Below, piece by piece: positions 29,803-40,537 of a stretch of 41,917 bases of DNA (the first letter of the stretch is position 1; each line of letters opens with the position of its first letter). A program made the position numbers and the translations under genes. The notes under the pieces are model-generated. The model did not search any database. It saw only the letters and a program-made list of their open reading frames with translations, and had not been told where the DNA came from. This stretch comes from a virus, in the IMG/VR virus record IMGVR_UViG_3300049718_000153, positions 1 through 41,917 of that record; one strand, 5' to 3'.

Positions 29803-32640
29803 CTAAGCTTCTTGCGAAGAATTCCGCCGAACACCCGCTGCATGGCCGTGACCTTGTGCGAGAGCAGAGTCTTGTCGAGAGGTGATTGCTGAGCCGGGTG
29901 TGTCTGCGTCTTTTGTGCTGCCCTCAAACATCATCTTTAAGAACTGCGCCGCAAGTGTCTGAAACACGCCACTTCTGTTAGCGTCAGAAGGTGTTAGTTC
30001 TAAAATCTTTGCAAGCTTCTTAAGGTCTTTATCCTGTACCAAGGTCTCAAGCGACGGAAGACCGTTCTCAGCACGTGCTTCTTTCCATGTGCGAGATTCT
30101 TTCATCTCCGCGAACTGCCGCGCGTCTTCTTTAGGAGTCTTACCTGTGAAGCCAAAACGCAGATGCGGCCAGCGTGTTGCTATAAGGTATTCGTTGATAA
30201 CGACTTCCCAGTGCGTCAGCAGGGGAGCAAGGCCAGGATCGTCTTCGTCAACTGCGGCGATAGAGGAGTCAGGAAGAGGTTCGTTGTCTCGCGCTGTGCC
30301 GCTGACTTTATAGCCCAGGCGGCGGACTGGAAAACGCCAGAGCGTTGCAAGTGCTCCTGCAAGCATGTTCATCCAGAGATTATAAAATGACTCGTTTCCT
30401 TTTAAGCGCGTCAAGTCCAGGAGTTCAAGTTTTGCACCATCTGGAAGCCCCATGACGGGAAGAGCCCACCACTTCGAAATGCCTTTTTTCATGTTCGTAA
30501 ACATGCGAGTAAGCAAGTCGATTTGGCGTTGCGTGATCGCTCCACCAGAGACTGTTAGGATACCTTGTGCTATGCTCGAATTTCCTGACCAAGCAGCCTT
30601 GCCATTACGCCGAACATAGAGCGTTCCATTGGGAACAGTGACGCAGCCGATCTTACCTGTATAAGGCGTCTTCTCTAAATTGAAGGCTTGCATTTTCGAC
30701 ATTTTTAGGCGGATGTCGTAACGAGTCCTGCTTGTTTTGATCGCTTGTGTACCGCCCTTAATGATGCGCCCTGGCACGATATATTTTTCAGCGTTTACAG
30801 TACTGATTGTTGCAGCATACCCCATTTTTTGCGCTAGTTCTTGCAGTTGATCAGCCATAAGGCGGCTAGTCGTAGCTATGTGTTCAACACGGTTAAGCCT
30901 TTTTGCATTCTTCGTTTTTACCCATTGAATACAGCCGTCCCCTAAACAGTAATAATCCCAGAAGATTTTTTGTTGGCGAGGTGTCGCGTCAAGAATTTCC
31001 TGTGGGATGTGCTTTGTGTAGCAGTCTTCTCCAAACTGCCGAAGGTGTTCAGCAAGGCCGTGCCAGTTCACAGCAAAACAATTTTCTGCATAAAACTGAG
31101 GCTTAGCATCAAGCACTTTTTGAATCAGTGCGTAAAACGGTTGGAAACCCTTAGAAGCGCGTCTTTGGGCAATGGAGATTTTCTCTAAACGGCGGCTGTT
31201 ACCCTTTGCCAAGCTTCCTTCCGAAAGAAACATACCCAAGAAAGCACAATAATCGTCGCCCGAAATCTTTCGAGGTTTACGGCCATAATGTGTAGGATAG
31301 GCAGAAAACGATTTTGTTTTGATCTCCTTACCCTCCCACGCAGATGTCGTCGGAAGGCAATAGTTTTGCCTTGAAAGCTTCTTCATGCCTTGTAACTGCA
31401 AAAACAAATCGCGTGCAGTACTGACAGTGTAATCAGTCTCGCCATAAATCAAAAAAGAGGGCTTGTATTGTGTAATGATCCGATGGTTTGGCGTTACCTC
31501 AAAATCAAACGACCTTGAAGCCACACGATACATGTCACCTGAATAGTCGTGCCATGTTTTAGCTGTAGCTTTCTGGTATTCAAACGTTCCATGCTGCAAA
31601 TTAAGCGTTGCAAACAAGTCCTTTTCGATGTCTACCGCACCAAACAGCTTCCAGCCTTCTTTTGTCAAAACCTCCGTATCTGCTCGGTGGCATTTATCGA
31701 AGACATCACAATTAAGGTCAATCGCATTCTGAAATCCCTTGATAATGCGCATCGCCATTTCGACCTCCGGGTACCCGTAGCCGAAAACGTCAGGGTCAGT
31801 ACGCGGGTTACGCACCGCAATGGTCAGCTCATCACGTGTAAATGCTTGAATGACTCTTCCGCCCTCATCAACTGCCACAGCATATTTGTCAGGATCGTTC
31901 TCATAACCAGCCGTCGTACAAAGCCGGATGTTTCCTGCTGGAAGAAGCGCGTAGCCTTTAACACACTCCTTCATATCCATGTCCGTCCAGATCGCGAGCA
32001 TGTCGAAGGTGAGCCAGTCGCGCGTTCCAGCCGCAAGAAACTTTTGAAAGCCTGTGAGCCGTTTGGAGTCACGTTTGCGGACTTCCGTATAGCTCGTTTC
32101 GATATTAGAGTTCTGGATGAAGCGTGTCGCTTCAGCTATGTCTTTCTTGACGTTCGCTTTGTCGTTATCTTCCGTATCGACGGCTTCAATGTGCCAGCCG
32201 GGTTTCCAAATGTGTTTTGCGTGGTTTGAATAACGAAGCACGTCATCAACGCGCATTCCGAGAACAAGCTGTGGGGCGACATTCTCACGCACGATCTTGC
32301 GAAGGGAATCCGGGTTAATCCCCGGCCATTGCATCACGCCGCCATTAGTCGTCGCATCAGGCGCGTAAGAAAGCCGCCCGAAGTTAAAAGCCGTAGGAGG
32401 AGTCCCAAGCGCCTTAGCGCTGGTGTATTTTGGCGACTCAACCCCAAGCGCCTTAGCCGCAGCCAGCATCGGATCATCCGACCCGAGCATACTCTCGAAA
32501 GCCTTAGCGTAACCCCCAATATCAATAGCTAAGGTGTTCTCAGGCATGGACGGGAAACGATAGCCCTTAACAGCATCAGCGCCTTCGTTAACGTCAAACA
32601 CCGCCGCTTTGGCTGTTACAGCCGGACTTGATTCACTCAT
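29803..32640 (-). CDS. Portal protein interrupted by a LAGLIDADG intein
   Basis: A 945-codon gene. Extein residues 1-316 and 688-945 form the portal, the dodecameric ring through which DNA is packed. The N-part has IVRENVAPQLVLGMRVDDVL and the W-rich portal pattern; the C-part begins SSIAQGILTVSGGAIT and contains a Trp-rich and helical clip. Residues 317-687 are an intein. After splicing the portal has about 574 residues, a normal length. The start overlaps the stop of the terminase nuclease gene (ATGA). The C-terminal tail is Ser/Gln/His-rich. Confidence 0.85.
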   Translation of the reverse strand: MSESSPAVTAKAAVFDVNEGADAVKGYRFPSMPENTLAIDIGGYAKAFESMLGSDDPMLAAAKALGVESPKYTSAKALGTPPTAFNFGRLSYAPDATTNGGVMQWPGINPDSLRKIVRENVAPQLVLGMRVDDVLRYSNHAKHIWKPGWHIEAVDTEDNDKANVKKDIAEATRFIQNSNIETSYTEVRKRDSKRLTGFQKFLAAGTRDWLTFDMLAIWTDMDMKECVKGYALLPAGNIRLCTTAGYENDPDKYAVAVDEGGRVIQAFTRDELTIAVRNPRTDPDVFGYGYPEVEMAMRIIKGFQNAIDLNCDVFDKCHRADTEVLTKEGWKLFGAVDIEKDLFATLNLQHGTFEYQKATAKTWHDYSGDMYRVASRSFDFEVTPNHRIITQYKPSFLIYGETDYTVSTARDLFLQLQGMKKLSRQNYCLPTTSAWEGKEIKTKSFSAYPTHYGRKPRKISGDDYCAFLGMFLSEGSLAKGNSRRLEKISIAQRRASKGFQPFYALIQKVLDAKPQFYAENCFAVNWHGLAEHLRQFGEDCYTKHIPQEILDATPRQQKIFWDYYCLGDGCIQWVKTKNAKRLNRVEHIATTSRLMADQLQELAQKMGYAATISTVNAEKYIVPGRIIKGGTQAIKTSRTRYDIRLKMSKMQAFNLEKTPYTGKIGCVTVPNGTLYVRRNGKAAWSGNSSIAQGILTVSGGAITQRQIDLLTRMFTNMKKGISKWWALPVMGLPDGAKLELLDLTRLKGNESFYNLWMNMLAGALATLWRFPVRRLGYKVSGTARDNEPLPDSSIAAVDEDDPGLAPLLTHWEVVINEYLIATRWPHLRFGFTGKTPKEDARQFAEMKESRTWKEARAENGLPSLETLVQDKDLKKLAKILELTPSDANRSGVFQTLAAQFLKMMFEGSTKDADTPGSAITSRQDSALAQGHGHAAGVRRNSSQEA
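30580..31692 (-). other. Intein with LAGLIDADG endonuclease in portal gene
   Basis: A 371-residue intein, residues 317-687 of the portal precursor. It starts with Cys in CHRADTEVLTKEGW (block A). Block B has VTPNH (Thr383, His386). Two LAGLIDADG-like helices are FLGMFLSEGSL (about 467-477) and WDYYCLGDGC (about 561-570). The C-terminal block ends TLYVRRNGKAAWSGN, then Ser as +1. The penultimate residue is Gly instead of the usual His, which may slow Asn cyclisation but is known in active inteins. Removing it joins FDK to SSIAQG in a sensible portal sequence. The endonuclease would spread the element between portal genes. Confidence 0.88.
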
Positions 32641-33806
32641 TTTCGCATCGCTTCCGAGAGCAGGTTAACATCCGTAGGAAGGTCGTCAGCGTATGAGTCG
32701 CAGGAGTCCAAAGCAAGCATCCTACGGCCTTGGATAGTGCAAAATTTCTGTCCGTCATGGACGCAGCGTGCACAGGTGCCCCAGTAGGGGTCCTCGGATT
32801 GGTTCACGAGATCGCCTATGGCGGAGAGCATAAGCGCACGGGGATCGGTGGCGAGGGGCTGGGAGCTTTGAGACGCGGCAAGGTAGCCGGGGAGCTGGGA
32901 ACGTTCGGGAGCCCAATCAGCCGGGAGGTGGACCATACCCGAGCCCATGATGATAGCGCGAGTGACGAGATGGACCGTGGCGTCTACTTGGTCGGATGAG
33001 GCATCGTCGTTACCGGAGAAGTCTTTGAGTTCCGTGCGCCATGCTTCGAGCCAGGGGGCATAGGTAGGGGAAAGGACGCGGTGCTGACGAAACCATCCTT
33101 GGACGGAACCGGCGGTTTTTAGCGTAACGCTGTTAACTGCGCGAGCACCTTTGGAGGCGGTGGCGGGCATTGGGACGATTGGAATGCCTGAGGATTCTAG
33201 GGATTGGATAAGGGAAATGCCCGAGGCTTTCTTTTCGATTAAGACCTCTTGCGGACGCCAGAGCTGGTAAAGGGTTTTGGCTGCGTTGACCAAACCGCCC
33301 CAATCGACACGACGGCGGAAGACATCTAGGATGAGCACGTCGAAATGATAATCACAAGGACCGACGATGGCGGGGTTTTCGCCACGATGGTAGGCTTGAC
33401 AGGGGACGATTAAGGCCGTGACGCAGACGGTGTGCGCGGCTTGGAGAGACGTGGAGAAAGCCGTGTCCCAAGCCTGAAGGACACAATGCCCTTGCGAGAC
33501 AAAATCTCGGACGTAAGGGGACGGCATTCCGAGAGCGAGTTCAGATGGAGAGAACTGAACGCCGCGGACGAGGCACTGATAAAAGGAATCAAGATCGTCG
33601 GCTAGGAAGATTGAGCCTTGGCGCGAGCCAGGACGGCATTGATAAGTTGCCTCGAAGACATCGGGCGAGGAGCGTTTAATGATTAAGACTTCAGAGCGCT
33701 TTTGCTCGGACTCTGGCCAGTAAAAACCCATGCCTTTGGGATCAATGCCATAAGGCATTCGAACGCGATAGATGCGGCGAGGGGAGTCGTTGTGAGTGGA
33801 AGGCAT
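32637..33806 (-). CDS. terL: Large terminase, C-terminal nuclease half (split gene)
   Basis: A 389-residue protein corresponding to the RNase H-like nuclease half of TerL. Residues 50-60 (FEATYQCRPG) match the linker after the ATPase. Acidic residues expected for the two-metal site are Asp114 (VLQAWDTAF), Glu191 (VLIEKKASG) and Asp272/275 (SDQVDATVHL). It has its own AGGAAA ribosome binding site and ATG. The C-terminal about 45 residues hold an extra Cys cluster (CARC, then C and C) that could bind metal. The ATPase half is a separate gene with a Mom-like gene in between. The two polypeptides must assemble to form a packaging motor. Confidence 0.85.
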   Translation of the reverse strand: MPSTHNDSPRRIYRVRMPYGIDPKGMGFYWPESEQKRSEVLIIKRSSPDVFEATYQCRPGSRQGSIFLADDLDSFYQCLVRGVQFSPSELALGMPSPYVRDFVSQGHCVLQAWDTAFSTSLQAAHTVCVTALIVPCQAYHRGENPAIVGPCDYHFDVLILDVFRRRVDWGGLVNAAKTLYQLWRPQEVLIEKKASGISLIQSLESSGIPIVPMPATASKGARAVNSVTLKTAGSVQGWFRQHRVLSPTYAPWLEAWRTELKDFSGNDDASSDQVDATVHLVTRAIIMGSGMVHLPADWAPERSQLPGYLAASQSSQPLATDPRALMLSAIGDLVNQSEDPYWGTCARCVHDGQKFCTIQGRRMLALDSCDSYADDLPTDVNLLSEAMRK

Positions 33807-33831
33807 TTACAGCTTTCCTGCTTGTCTGTTG

Positions 33832-34494
33832 TCAAGCCTCAACATTTATAAGCTCTCCAGGACGATGAAGGACAAACTTGTGCTTGTAAAAGCTACCAAC
33901 TTTTGTATGACCAAGTGCTAGCATTTCAGCTTTCACGCGATTTTTTGTAGCCTTCTGTGCGACTTGTTTTCCGTTTGCATCCAACCACCGAGGGTAAGGG
34001 CCTGTACGTCCTACGTACAACCAGTTAGCTGCACGATAAATCTGTCCAAAATGGTTTTGGCTTTCGTCTGCATAAGTGACAAGCGTTACAAAGCGATTGT
34101 CTGACCAAATGCGCCTAACAGAATGTGCTAACAGAAAAGAGGCCGCGTTTTTTGGAACGTCCGGTAAGATAACCAGCCGTGTTAATGAAAGGACTTTCTT
34201 CCAGTTAAGCTTATTGACGCTCTCACAAGCGACACGCGTTGGTGGAAGCCACCACGCTACGCCCGCTAACTGCCCAGAGACACGATTGTATAGCCCATGC
34301 ATATAGCAGCAAGTGTTGCTGCCTCCGTGTGCATAATGCCACTGCTTAACAAGCGCCTGACCTTCTTTTAGCGGTGCATCCGCAACAAGCCAGTCACGCT
34401 TTTGGAGCAGCAAGATCGGAATCGAACCGTCTTCCTTCTGTTGGACAACAGAAAGCTCTACCAATGAGCTATTGCTGCAAAGCCTCTTCAACAT
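33832..34494 (-). CDS. Mom-like DNA-modification (GNAT-fold) protein
   Basis: A 220-residue protein. The core from about residue 38 has KQWHYAHGGSNTCCYMHGLY, GVAWWLPPT, VLSLTRLVILPDVP, then LVTYADESQNHFGQIYRAAN, the pattern of phage proteins annotated as Mom-family. Mu Mom adds a carbamoylmethyl group to adenine and protects phage DNA from restriction. The fold is acetyltransferase-like. It lies nine bases after the stop of the terminase ATPase half and just before the nuclease half. The start (ATG 34494) has only a weak AGGGTG site. DNA modification is inferred by family resemblance; the chemistry may differ. Confidence 0.68.
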   Translation of the reverse strand: MLKRLCSNSSLVELSVVQQKEDGSIPILLLQKRDWLVADAPLKEGQALVKQWHYAHGGSNTCCYMHGLYNRVSGQLAGVAWWLPPTRVACESVNKLNWKKVLSLTRLVILPDVPKNAASFLLAHSVRRIWSDNRFVTLVTYADESQNHFGQIYRAANWLYVGRTGPYPRWLDANGKQVAQKATKNRVKAEMLALGHTKVGSFYKHKFVLHRPGELINVEA

Positions 34495-34503
34495 TCAAAC
34501 ACC

Positions 34504-36189
34504 CTAGATAATGTCCCTCTCAGGCTCAGAGAAGATAAGCTTGGACTCTTCAGCAAGCGCGCTTTTTAACGCTTCTTCTGAAGGCTTTAACAATGCCTCA
34601 TCCGAACCAACGTTCTCAAACCCAACAGCTTGAATCATCGAACGTGCGTCTTCGGACTTGGGGATGCCTAAACAGGCAGGATGCTCTCCACGCATCATTT
34701 CTGTAAAGACACATTCTAAGCCTTCGGGAATCGTAACGTCCCAATACAGATAATCCGCCTTCTCGCGAATGTTAGGAAGCTCCATAACAACCCATTCGCC
34801 TGTGCGCTTGAGATGGCCATAGATGTCTTCATCGTGCCAACGGCGGCCTGCAAAGATAAATCTCGCACCGCGCGGATCAGCGCGGCCTAAGATTTGAGAA
34901 TAAAACGTATCGCGGACGCTTTTGCAGGCTTCAGCTGAGGAGGAGTTTTCCTTATCATGCAAGTCGTCCCCGATAATAATCCGCGCGTGAACGCCGGTTA
35001 GGCGCTTAGACGAAAGCCCAGCCGCAAGATAAGAAGCATCAGGGTCGCCAGCCGCGTGCCCAGAGACAAACATCCCGCGCTCGGTGGACCAGCCACGGCC
35101 TTTGTCAGGGAGGACTTGCGGGAAAGCAGCTTTCCAGCCAGGAGCGTGTTCAACCCATTCCATAACCGCTGACATGAAGCCTTGCATAAGGGCTTCACCA
35201 GCCGAAATCCCGACGATGGTTGTGTCAGGGACTTGGCCAAGCATGTAAGCAGGGAAGACAGTAGAGAGGAGCGCAGAGTTATGCGTGACGATGTTGTTTT
35301 CGATAACAAACAACCCAGCAGGATGATCGATGTTGATGCAGACGGAAGGGGACTCGAATGCTTCCTGGTGAATAGACATGATCTCTAAGCTGGCGAGATC
35401 GTTGTATGTAGAGCTGCATTGCTGCACGTACCATTTTACGCGATTGCCTCTTGGCGCATGTTTATAGAGGCAAATCTCCTCAGTCGTGCGAATGCGCCAG
35501 TCAAGGTCTACGTTTCCAAGCTTGAAGTCCTTATTATAGACCTTCCATAGGTGATTCCCATTGGCGCGGATTAAACAGCCATCGGCAAAGTTTAGACGGT
35601 AGAGGCGGCTTAAAGGCTGCTCGAACACGCCACGGACCTTAACCCAAGTCTTCCCGTCAGGGATCATCACGAAGTCAGATGTTGTAAGCGCCCCCATGCG
35701 AAGCCAACCGCGCTTGGTAAGGACTTTGGTATCGGGGTGCAGGGCTTTGCCCGACCCTGGGCCGATTACGATTAGGAGCTTTTTGATACGAGGGTCAGAG
35801 AGGGCGAAGGCGGGGTATTGCAGGTGAGGCGGAAAGGAAAACCCACGTGCGTGATACATGAGGTTGTAGAAGGTGATTAAGCCGACCGCGTTATTAGGGA
35901 TCGTGGAGGCAAGACGATACGTAGGGGCGTTGCGACCTTGGCTGATCGCGGGGGAAGCCACGCCGGGAGATAAGGCTTCGCCAGAACCATACGGAGAGGC
36001 GGCGGGGGAGGAGGCCGGGGGAGGAAGATCGTCTTCTAAACCGGAAGTTAGAAGCTTTTGACGCTCCTTTAAATCCCATTGTGCTTTGATGAAGTCAGGA
36101 TCGCGTGAGCGGGGCGCAGCCTCGGAGTCGGGGCGGGCTTTGGGCGGCCGACCGCGTTTCTTTGGAAGGATTGGCAGGAGATCACGCAC
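34504..36189 (-). CDS. terL: Large terminase, N-terminal ATPase half with mini-intein
   Basis: A 561-codon gene with GTG start overlapping the preceding stop. Extein residues 1-148 and 305-561 give an ATPase half of about 405 residues. Walker A is GPGSGK (143-148) completed by Ser305 after splicing. Walker B is RIIIGDD (Asp408, Asp409), and the coupling motif FAGRRWHDED follows near 447-455. The nuclease half is missing and is encoded separately at 32637-33806. The N-terminal about 90 residues are basic and Pro/Ser-rich. The protein would power DNA translocation with the nuclease half at the portal. Confidence 0.88.
   Translation of the reverse strand: MRDLLPILPKKRGRPPKARPDSEAAPRSRDPDFIKAQWDLKERQKLLTSGLEDDLPPPASSPAASPYGSGEALSPGVASPAISQGRNAPTYRLASTIPNNAVGLITFYNLMYHARGFSFPPHLQYPAFALSDPRIKKLLIVIGPGSGKALHPDTKVLTKRGWLRMGALTTSDFVMIPDGKTWVKVRGVFEQPLSRLYRLNFADGCLIRANGNHLWKVYNKDFKLGNVDLDWRIRTTEEICLYKHAPRGNRVKWYVQQCSSTYNDLASLEIMSIHQEAFESPSVCINIDHPAGLFVIENNIVTHNSALLSTVFPAYMLGQVPDTTIVGISAGEALMQGFMSAVMEWVEHAPGWKAAFPQVLPDKGRGWSTERGMFVSGHAAGDPDASYLAAGLSSKRLTGVHARIIIGDDLHDKENSSSAEACKSVRDTFYSQILGRADPRGARFIFAGRRWHDEDIYGHLKRTGEWVVMELPNIREKADYLYWDVTIPEGLECVFTEMMRGEHPACLGIPKSEDARSMIQAVGFENVGSDEALLKPSEEALKSALAEESKLIFSEPERDII
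35278..35745 (-). other. Mini-intein in Walker A of terminase ATPase
   Basis: A 156-residue intein (residues 149-304) between GPGSGK and SALLSTVFP. Block A reads ALHPDTKVLTKRGW, so residue 1 is Ala rather than Cys or Ser. Block B has GCLIRANGNH with Asn in place of the usual Thr of TxxH. The end is VCINIDHP, then LFVIENNIVTHN, then Ser. No LAGLIDADG or HNH endonuclease is present. Ala at position 1 cannot make the first N-S/O shift, so splicing would need direct attack by Ser305, the route known for Ala1 inteins such as KlbA, which use Cys. Ala1 together with Ser+1 is unusual. Confidence 0.85.
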
Positions 36190-36668
36190 TATGAAACGTT
36201 CTCTTTCCAGTCTTCATCGACCTCAGCAAAGACCTCTGGCCCGAAAACAAGTTCCCCACGATAGGGAAGCTTTCCCGTTAGAGCAAGCTGATCGCCGTAA
36301 TATGTGAGCGTAACGTGTGGGTGATAGTCGTCATAATCCCAAGACGCGCCTTTGTTGCAGAAGTCTATCCAGCGCAGCTCGAATTTGTTCGACGAAAAGA
36401 GCAGCACGACCGCGCCTTCGTCACCAAGTGGGGCGAGCTTTCTAACGCCATAGCCTTCAGGGATGATGACACGATTGCGTTTGGGCTTGAGATGACTCCA
36501 GTCGAACGCCTTTCGGCTGAAGGCCAAGGTAACGTGCATGTCGTCAGGAGAAAGCGGTTGCTCAAAGCCATTACGCTGTGCCCAAGCGAAGAGCGCTTTA
36601 GCGTTGAGAAGAGGACGGGAGACGTAGAGAGTTTTTGGACGGGCTTTTGCAAGCAGGGGCTTTTTCAT
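36189..36668 (-). CDS. 2H phosphoesterase, Acb1-like anti-CBASS candidate
   Basis: A 159-residue protein from ATG 36668 (GGAG at seven bases). It has the two HxT motifs of 2H phosphoesterases: MHVTLAFSRK (His45, Thr47) and YHPHVTLTYYGD (His118, Thr120). The spacing and length match T4 Acb1 (gp57B; 152 residues, with HxT near 44-46 and 113-115 as I recall). Acb1 cleaves the cyclic di- and trinucleotides of CBASS immunity. The HVTLAFSRK segment and the acidic FAEVDEDWKEN tail fit too. The stop overlaps the terminase start. Other 2H roles such as RNA-end repair remain possible. Confidence 0.78.
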   Translation of the reverse strand: MKKPLLAKARPKTLYVSRPLLNAKALFAWAQRNGFEQPLSPDDMHVTLAFSRKAFDWSHLKPKRNRVIIPEGYGVRKLAPLGDEGAVVLLFSSNKFELRWIDFCNKGASWDYDDYHPHVTLTYYGDQLALTGKLPYRGELVFGPEVFAEVDEDWKENVS

Positions 36669-36669
36669 T

Positions 36670-36987
36670 TTAGTCTCCAGGACAGTGAACGCCTTCGGCA
36701 CCGCTTTCAATTGCGTCTAGCGCAGCCTTATCGAGCATCCGGTGGACAGGTGTGCTGCCGTCTTCTTCCTCTTGCGAGAGCGCACAGTCTATGGCTTGCG
36801 CAAAAACCAGCGGGTCAGTGACTTCGGGGTATTCGAACTCGCCAGTTTCCTCGTTAAACAGCGAAAGGCTAGGATCAAACTCGATAGCGTGTGCGAGACA
36901 AGCAATGCCGATGGTGATTACAAGCCGTCCACCAACGACTTGAACTTTAAGAGGCTCGTCTTCTGGCGAGAAGCTTACATCCAACAT
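36670..36987 (-). CDS. Hypothetical acidic protein
   Basis: A 105-residue acidic protein with a beta-strand start (LKVQVVGGRLVITIGIACLA) and an acidic C-terminal half. GGAG in the end of the preceding small gene serves as ribosome binding site. It overlaps the spacer of the Acb1-like gene and is co-transcribed. No family is recognised. Confidence 0.65.
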   Translation of the reverse strand: MLDVSFSPEDEPLKVQVVGGRLVITIGIACLAHAIEFDPSLSLFNEETGEFEYPEVTDPLVFAQAIDCALSQEEEDGSTPVHRMLDKAALDAIESGAEGVHCPGD

Positions 36988-39028: not shown

Positions 39029-39437
39029 GAAGGTGCAACGTTAAAAGAGGCGGCTATGGTGATAATGACAAGGGCAATGCAAAAAATGTTAAAAATTTAG
39101 CGAGGGGATAGCCCGTTTCCTCGCCTCCGTCCTTCCGTCCTCCCCGGCTACGGGGGGCATGGGGCTTGCGAAGGCCTAAGCCGCCAGGACAGGGGGGGGG
39201 GGGATTGAGCGCTGGCAAGGCGCGCGACGTTGCAGCTGGCAAGGCGCAAGGCGCAAGGCGCAAGGCAAAGGCAAAGGCATTAAGCGTGCCATAGTGATAA
39301 GCGTGTAGTGCATAAGAGGTATGCGTGTGGCGCTTAGAGATAATGAGGCATTGCGTAGCTATGGCGATAAGAGAGTGTTGCATAACGCGCGACTCTGCTT
39401 TATATAATAGAGACTGAATTGAGAGAGGAACAAGGCA
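39029..39437. other. Intergenic region with G-tract and short tandem repeats
   Basis: About 400 bases without a supported gene. It holds a run of 12 G residues (39192-39203), tandem GGCGCAA/GGCAAA units (about 39236-39280), and the rightward promoter at 39378-39408. It separates divergent leftward and rightward gene groups and is a good place for regulatory or recombination signals. Confidence 0.55.
39378..39408 (+). promoter_or_regulatory. Rightward sigma-70-like promoter
   Basis: A perfect TATAAT at 39403-39408 with TTGCAT at 39378-39383 (19-base spacing, longer than ideal). It lies 30 bases before the ATG at 39438, the first of three plus-strand genes. Confidence 0.5.
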
Positions 39438-39826: not shown

Positions 39827-40537
39827 ATGACAAAGCTTTACAAGTTAACGGATCAAGAAGGTTACACACGTCGCGGTGAATCAAACAAATGCCTTTGGGG
39901 CAAGGGAGTCTCACATTCTGGGACGGGCGAGGGGGAGCTATGCAGGCCGGGACTTGTTCATGCTTATGAGCATCCGTTGCTGGCTGTGTTGCTTAACCCG
40001 ATTCACGCAAATTTTTCAAACCCGCGGCTTTGGGAAGCGGAAGGCACGATTGCTAAAAGCGAGGGGCGGCTAAAATGCGGTTGTGTAACGCTCACAACGG
40101 TTAAAGAGATTGCGTTGCCGATAGTTACGAAAGAACAACAAATCAGGTTTGCGATTCTATGCGCAAAAGCTGTTTTCACTGACGAGGCTTGGAATCTATG
40201 GGCTGATAGCTGGTTGTCAGGTAAAGATCGTACCACTGAGGCAGCTGAGGCAGCTTGGGCAGCAGCTCGGGCAGCTAAGGCAGCTTGGGCAGCAGCTGAG
40301 GCAGCTTGGGCAGCAGCTGAGGCAGCTTGGGCAGCAGCTGAGGCAGCTTGGGCAGCTGAGGCAGTTCGGGCAGCTTGGACAGCAGCTCGGGCAGCTTGGG
40401 CAGCTCGGGCAGCTTGGACAGCAGTTCGGGCAGCTTGGGCAGCAGCTCGGGCAGCTGAGGCAGCATGGGCAGCTAAAAAATCCATTGATCTCATAACCAT
40501 CGCCAAAACCGCCTGCAATTGGGAAGAAACGCCATGA
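39827..40537 (+). CDS. Protein with Ala/Trp heptad tandem repeats
   Basis: A 236-residue protein from ATG 39827 with AAGGAAAA. Residues 1-125 form a globular domain (YKLTDQEGYTRRGESNKCLW, LVHAYEHPLL), similar in style to small phage proteins that precede Ala-rich tails. Residues about 137-215 are tandem seven-residue units (A-W-A-A-A-E-A and variants with Arg, Lys, Thr). Trp recurs mostly every seven residues, with some 4-residue steps, so a long amphipathic helix or coil is likely. The DNA is a 21-bp tandem repeat. The stop overlaps the next gene. The function is not known. Confidence 0.7.
   Translation: MTKLYKLTDQEGYTRRGESNKCLWGKGVSHSGTGEGELCRPGLVHAYEHPLLAVLLNPIHANFSNPRLWEAEGTIAKSEGRLKCGCVTLTTVKEIALPIVTKEQQIRFAILCAKAVFTDEAWNLWADSWLSGKDRTTEAAEAAWAAARAAKAAWAAAEAAWAAAEAAWAAAEAAWAAEAVRAAWTAARAAWAARAAWTAVRAAWAAARAAEAAWAAKKSIDLITIAKTACNWEETP
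40238..40473 (+). repeat. 21-bp tandem repeat array inside the Ala/Trp-repeat gene
   Basis: A block built from GAGGCAGCTTGGGCAGCAG CT units, about 21 bp each, with point changes (CGG, AAG, ACA). Three successive units are identical. Such arrays expand and shrink by slippage or recombination in multiples of seven residues without changing frame. Confidence 0.75.

What the first reader, a model, noticed from the sequence alone, without database searches (positions are those of the whole stretch)
32637..36189. Large terminase split into ATPase and nuclease genes around a Mom-like gene
The ATPase motifs (Walker A/B, FAGRRWHDED) are in one gene and the nuclease acids (Asp114, Glu191, Asp275) in another, each with its own start. 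A DNA-modification-type gene sits exactly between them. Packaging motors are normally one chain. The arrangement could couple modification and packaging, or be the result of a gene insertion that the phage tolerates because the halves assemble in trans.
Basis: partly seen in the sequence, partly recalled or inferred. Interest (0 to 1): 0.88.

Follow-up and report, generated by a model that had tools for sequence, protein, structure and literature searches.

The report
Phage DNA-packaging motor split between genes
In this phage the large subunit of the DNA-packaging motor, normally one protein, is made from two genes, and relatives show that this split is an old, repeatedly occurring arrangement whose gap carries different passenger genes, so the DNA-modification gene found here probably did not cause it.

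Summary
In detail: ATPase (34504-36189) and nuclease (32637-33806) are separate intact genes with a Mom-family gene between them, identical in a second assembly of the same phage.

Six further phage types also have a split TerL: three with abutting halves (TAATG/ATGA), three with halves 3.0, 3.6 and 5.9 kb apart around unrelated cargo. Eight viral relatives and one Acidiphilium contig have whole TerL. All breaks lie at one place. Split and whole forms interleave on the tree (AU p = 0.0004 against one split clade), so fission recurred or was reversed. Mom is private to this phage.

In a modelled whole relative the break falls in a loop about 50 residues before the ATPase/nuclease boundary, so the nuclease gene also encodes the end of the ATPase domain. 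Best reading: a two-chain TerL in which the nuclease chain completes the ATPase domain. Assembly in trans is inferred.

PHROGs holds short ATPase-only and nuclease-only TerL profiles, so stand-alone halves are not unprecedented.

The parts
34504..36189 (-). terL ATPase gene (561 aa with intein, 405 aa without): Walker A GPGSGK|S, Walker B IIIGDD, coupling motif AGRRW; ends in a 65-residue tail of unknown origin
   Evidence: tail without match in phages
35278..35745 (-). Mini-intein (156 aa, Ala1 ... THN|S) between Lys and Ser of Walker A, class 3 WCT pattern, no endonuclease domain
   Evidence: absent in whole relatives; L003 has the same intein with an endonuclease insert; PDB matches 6rix/6bs8 with W, C and T aligned
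34403..34478 (-). tRNA-like element (tRNA-Gly-like, 8-nt anticodon loop UUGUCCAA, bulge in T stem)
   Evidence: ARAGORN, Rfam RF00005 31.8 bits against cut-off 29, fold -25.1 kcal/mol, z -2.06
33832..34494 (-). Mom-family DNA-modification gene (likely start TTG 34413)
   Evidence: PF25680 2.4e-27, phrog_1384 5.8e-31; homologue starts
32637..33806 (-). terL nuclease gene (389 aa): about 60 N-terminal residues belonging to the end of the ATPase domain, then the RNase H-like nuclease with D114, E191, D275
29803..32640 (-). portal gene with its own intein (LAGLIDADG_3); terL neighbour in the relatives

Best explanation
The large terminase of this phage lineage is encoded as two separate polypeptides through gene fission at one position. 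Shown: the position is the same in seven split phage types; it maps to a loop between two predicted strands near the end of the ATPase domain, about 50 residues before the nuclease domain; both halves keep their motifs and are under purifying selection; the space between the genes holds anything from nothing to 5.9 kb of unrelated genes; the Mom gene is one such passenger. Inferred: the ATPase chain (after removal of its intein) and the nuclease chain associate without a covalent link because the first ~60 residues of the nuclease chain supply the missing end of the ATPase domain; the pair then works as an ordinary TerL on the portal. Once the halves were separate genes, the junction tolerated cargo that would have destroyed a single gene.
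For: Seven split types with one break point: the ATPase chain ends soon after C[CV]F[NT][ED], the nuclease chain starts soon before YGxDPxGxGFYW. Halves adjacent in L003, L029/L053, L063, apart in window, L054, L060, L057, with cargo partly on the opposite strand. Only one copy of each half in the records searched. Window, L003, L057, L060 form a split clade, 99/97. Motifs intact; dN/dS about 0.17 against L003. Model of whole L005: break between residues 248 and 262, in the loop 236-261 between two strands; solved ATPase domains align to model 1/4-312 and nuclease domains to 312-528. The segment after the break is confident in the whole chain (pLDDT 80-95) but not in the nuclease chain alone (32-47). 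Nuclease chain core matches G20c and RB49 TerL nucleases.
Against: No complex was modelled and nothing is known about the proteins in vitro. The pLDDT contrast may partly reflect shallower alignment (10 against 20 rows). The 65-residue ATPase tail of the window is unexplained. dS is near saturation, so dN/dS is rough. For the abutting pairs alone, a programmed frameshift or a sequence error cannot be fully excluded.
Confidence: 0.72

Rival explanations
1. Insertion of the Mom-like gene (with the tRNA-like element) broke a whole terL in this phage, which tolerates it.
For: Mom segment and ATPase tail are lower in G+C than flanking terL; Mom is private to this phage among split records.
Against: L003, L057 and L060, in the same clade, are split at the same point without Mom.
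Confidence: 0.07
2. The halves are rejoined after transcription or translation, by an intron, a split intein at the junction, or a frameshift or bypass.
For: The phage is rich in inteins; several relatives have overlapping ATGA/TAATG junctions where frameshifting is conceivable.
Against: No intron family by Rfam at the junction; no intein motifs at the new chain ends by inspection; own starts, ribosome-binding site AGGA in the window; in L057 and L060 genes on the other strand lie in between.
Confidence: 0.06
3. The split terL is decaying and another packaging enzyme does the work.
For: None found.
Against: One copy only of each half, intact motifs, purifying selection.
Confidence: 0.04
4. Mom sits between the halves because modification and packaging are functionally coupled.
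For: Position only.
Against: Cargo at the junction differs in every phage; Mom relatives lie next to other genes in unrelated contigs.
Confidence: 0.03
5. Fission (and the inteins in TerL and portal) helps to escape host Avs-type defences that sense TerL or portal.
For: Top structural match of the TerL model is a TerL bound by Avs3 (8dgc); an Acb1-family anti-CBASS gene lies next to the ATPase gene.
Against: Pure inference. Avs proteins recognise fold and active sites (own knowledge), which a complementing pair would still present. Relatives with whole TerL carry Acb1 too.
Confidence: 0.05

Closest known systems
Single-chain large terminase (T4 gp17, P74-26/G20c TerL; phrog_38)
   Same: Same motifs, same ATPase and nuclease folds, next to portal; whole relatives at 40-63% identity exist
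   Different: Two genes; break inside the ATPase domain; cargo of 0 to 5.9 kb between
PHROGs phrog_4758 (243 aa, ATPase part) and phrog_5573 (250 aa, nuclease part), both called terminase large subunit
   Same: Short TerL profiles covering one half each; split and whole proteins of this family match them
   Different: Which phages they come from, and whether by fission, intron or annotation, was not established here
TerL inteins of mycobacteriophages, site TerL1-a (PMC5050341) and class 3 DnaB inteins
   Same: Insertion between the P-loop Lys and the next hydroxyl residue; WCT pattern
   Different: Mini form without endonuclease here; the TerL belongs to another family and is split
Phage Mu Mom / Mom family PF25680
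   Same: Family profile well above cut-off; weak similarity to Mu Mom itself (E 0.076)
   Different: Location between the two terminase genes

Membership tests
Large terminase (TerL) | Walker A, Walker B and coupling motif of the ATPase | tested here: met
   Walker A complete only once the intein is removed
Large terminase (TerL) | RNase H-like nuclease with three acids | tested here: met
   D114, E191, D275 invariant; fold matches 5m1q, 3c6a
Large terminase (TerL) | ATPase and nuclease in one chain | tested here: not met
   Separate ORFs 697 bp apart, confirmed in a second assembly
Large terminase (TerL) | DNA packaging activity with portal | not testable with these tools
   portal gene adjacent
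Mom family (PF25680) | Profile above curated cut-off | tested here: met
   96.4 bits against 27.1
Mom family (PF25680) | Adenine modification activity | not testable with these tools
   -
Class 3 intein (TerL Walker A insert) | No nucleophile at position 1; Trp, Cys, Thr at blocks B12, F4, G5 | tested here: met
   Ala1; W of NHLW, C of SVCINI, T of VTHN align with 6rix and are conserved in L003; definition from PMC5050341
Class 3 intein (TerL Walker A insert) | Splices | not testable with these tools
   -
tRNA (element 34403-34478) | Cloverleaf with 7-nt anticodon loop | tested here: not met
   Cloverleaf yes, but the anticodon loop has 8 nt and the T stem a bulge; called tRNA-like only

The most novel reading that the evidence does not exclude
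A packaging motor whose ATPase domain is itself completed by a separately encoded chain: TerL as an obligate heterodimer, formed at one permissive loop more than once (or formed once and re-fused repeatedly), with the gap between the genes serving as an insertion site for cargo.
Probability: 0.55. Interest if true: 0.75.

Novelty: new variant of a known kind. Interest (0 to 1): 0.62.

Why it matters
TerL is treated as one chain whose ATPase and nuclease communicate through a covalent linker. A natural two-chain TerL, with relatives that are whole, gives a ready experiment on whether motor and nuclease need that link, and on where a viral packaging motor can be cut without loss of function. It also means that terL-based phage surveys may misread or drop such genomes.

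Tried and rejected
Sequencing error and simple frameshift: rejected. Intron at the junction: no Rfam hit. Origin of the 65-residue ATPase tail: no match in phages; similarity to the linker of whole L061 not significant (shuffle p 0.07); left open. Terminal repeats around the Mom segment: only short, chance-like repeats. Candidate split TerL in isolates: Aeromonas phage phiA008 and a Helicobacter prophage have single long ORFs under the ATPase match. The ATPase scan of bacterial genomes gave nothing; the nuclease scan gave one close relative, in an Acidiphilium MAG, with a whole 645-aa TerL. Literature searches found no description of TerL fission; the library is incomplete. All split rows as one clade: rejected by AU test.

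Full report
What is there. On the - strand of the window run an ATPase ORF (36189-34504), a Mom-family ORF (34494-33832), a nuclease ORF (33806-32637) and the portal ORF (32640-29803). Profiles confirm each: the ATPase and nuclease ORFs match different parts of the same TerL profile phrog_38, and the middle ORF passes Pfam's cut-off for Mom. A longer contig of the same phage (89,137 bp) is identical through the region; the only difference found is a poly-C length near 39203. The split is therefore not a reading error.

Directly after GPGSGK of Walker A the ATPase ORF contains 156 residues that are absent from whole relatives and end in IVTHN|S. The relative L003 has the same element with an extra endonuclease-type insert. 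The best PDB matches are the DnaB inteins 6rix and 6bs8, and the W, C and T residues align with the class 3 pattern (pattern as given in PMC5050341; that 6rix and 6bs8 are class 3 inteins is my own knowledge). TerL inteins between the P-loop Lys and the next hydroxyl residue are known in mycobacteriophages (PMC5050341). The portal ORF also has an intein. Between the ATPase stop and Mom lies a tRNA-like element that overlaps the first codons of the Mom ORF. Mom homologues begin about ten residues before the stretch that aligns with DWLV, so translation probably starts at TTG 34413.

Relatives. Scans of IMG/VR with halves and alignments gave a family with a conserved terL-portal neighbourhood. 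Split: L003 (halves overlap, TAATG), L029 and L053 (ATGA), L063 (ATGA), L054 (3.6 kb apart; NrdA, NrdB and a D12 DNA methylase between), L060 (about 3.0 kb; methyltransferase, glycosyltransferases GT9 and GT34, YAcAr, partly on the other strand), L057 (5.9 kb; DUF4214 protein, then GP88, CxxCxxCC, GT9 and methyltransferase genes, mostly on the other strand). Whole: L004, L005, L031, L045, L047, L048, L058, L061 and one contig in an Acidiphilium MAG. The halves found are the only copies in the records searched. Mom occurs only in the window phage among the six split records searched. Close Mom relatives (64-72%) lie beside other kinds of genes in unrelated contigs.

History. On a 19-row tree, window, L003, L057 and L060 form a supported clade of split genes (99/97). 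L029 and L063/L054 are split elsewhere, with whole genes interleaved. One split clade is rejected (p 0.0004), and so is one whole clade (p 4.6e-5). So either fission happened more than once at the same place, or an old fission was reversed more than once; the data do not decide. Within the window's own clade the split is older than the Mom insertion by parsimony. The Mom segment and the tail of the ATPase ORF are poorer in G+C than the rest of terL, in keeping with later acquisition of Mom. The origin of the tail itself is open.

Where the break lies. In every split case the ATPase chain ends shortly after C[CV]F[NT][ED], and the nuclease chain begins shortly before YGxDPxGxGFYW. In a model of the whole relative L005 (mean pLDDT 82.6) these correspond to residues 248 and 262, in a loop between strands 226-235 and 262-271. 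Solved ATPase domains of P74-26 and T4 TerL align with model residues 1/4 to 312, and TerL nuclease domains with 312 to 528. The break is thus about 50 residues before the domain boundary, and the nuclease gene also encodes the last part of the ATPase domain. That part is confident in the whole-chain model (80-95) but not in the model of the window nuclease chain alone (32-47), although the latter used fewer sequences. From this I infer that the two chains bind each other, the nuclease chain completing the ATPase domain. This is an inference from structure prediction, not a measurement.

Function. All motifs are intact, and both halves differ from L003 mainly at synonymous positions (dN/dS about 0.17, dS near saturation), so both are maintained. 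I find no sign that packaging and Mom modification are coupled. The simplest mechanism is a two-chain TerL that works like an ordinary one, with the gene junction tolerating passengers.

Known or new. A short ATPase-type and a short nuclease-type 'terminase large subunit' profile already exist in PHROGs (phrog_4758, phrog_5573), so separate halves have probably been annotated before. I found no paper that describes a fission of TerL, the recurrence of the break, or the variable cargo; the library searched is incomplete. I rate it a new variant of a known kind.

Noticed in passing
window 34403-34478 (-): tRNA-Gly-like element with an 8-nt anticodon loop (UUGUCCAA, four-base anticodon GUCC) and a bulged T stem: either a decayed tRNA or one resembling +1 frameshift suppressor tRNAs.
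   Followed up: partly
window 35278-35745 (-); L003 4033-5058: Class-3-like intein inside TerL Walker A; mini form in the window, endonuclease-bearing form in the relative.
   Followed up: partly
window 29803-32640 (-): Portal gene contains a second intein (starts CHRADTEV, ends before SSIAQG) with a LAGLIDADG_3 domain.
   Followed up: partly
window 36189-36710 (-); L003, L004, L005, L045: Acb1-family (anti-CBASS) gene near terL/portal in several relatives, with changing position.
   Followed up: no
L037 211-930 and 1007-1570: Two Mom-family genes side by side on one contig.
   Followed up: no
window ~40266-40456 and 39203: Tandem repeat of GCTGCCCAAGCTGCCTCA-type units, and a poly-C tract that differs in length between two assemblies of the same phage.
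   Followed up: no
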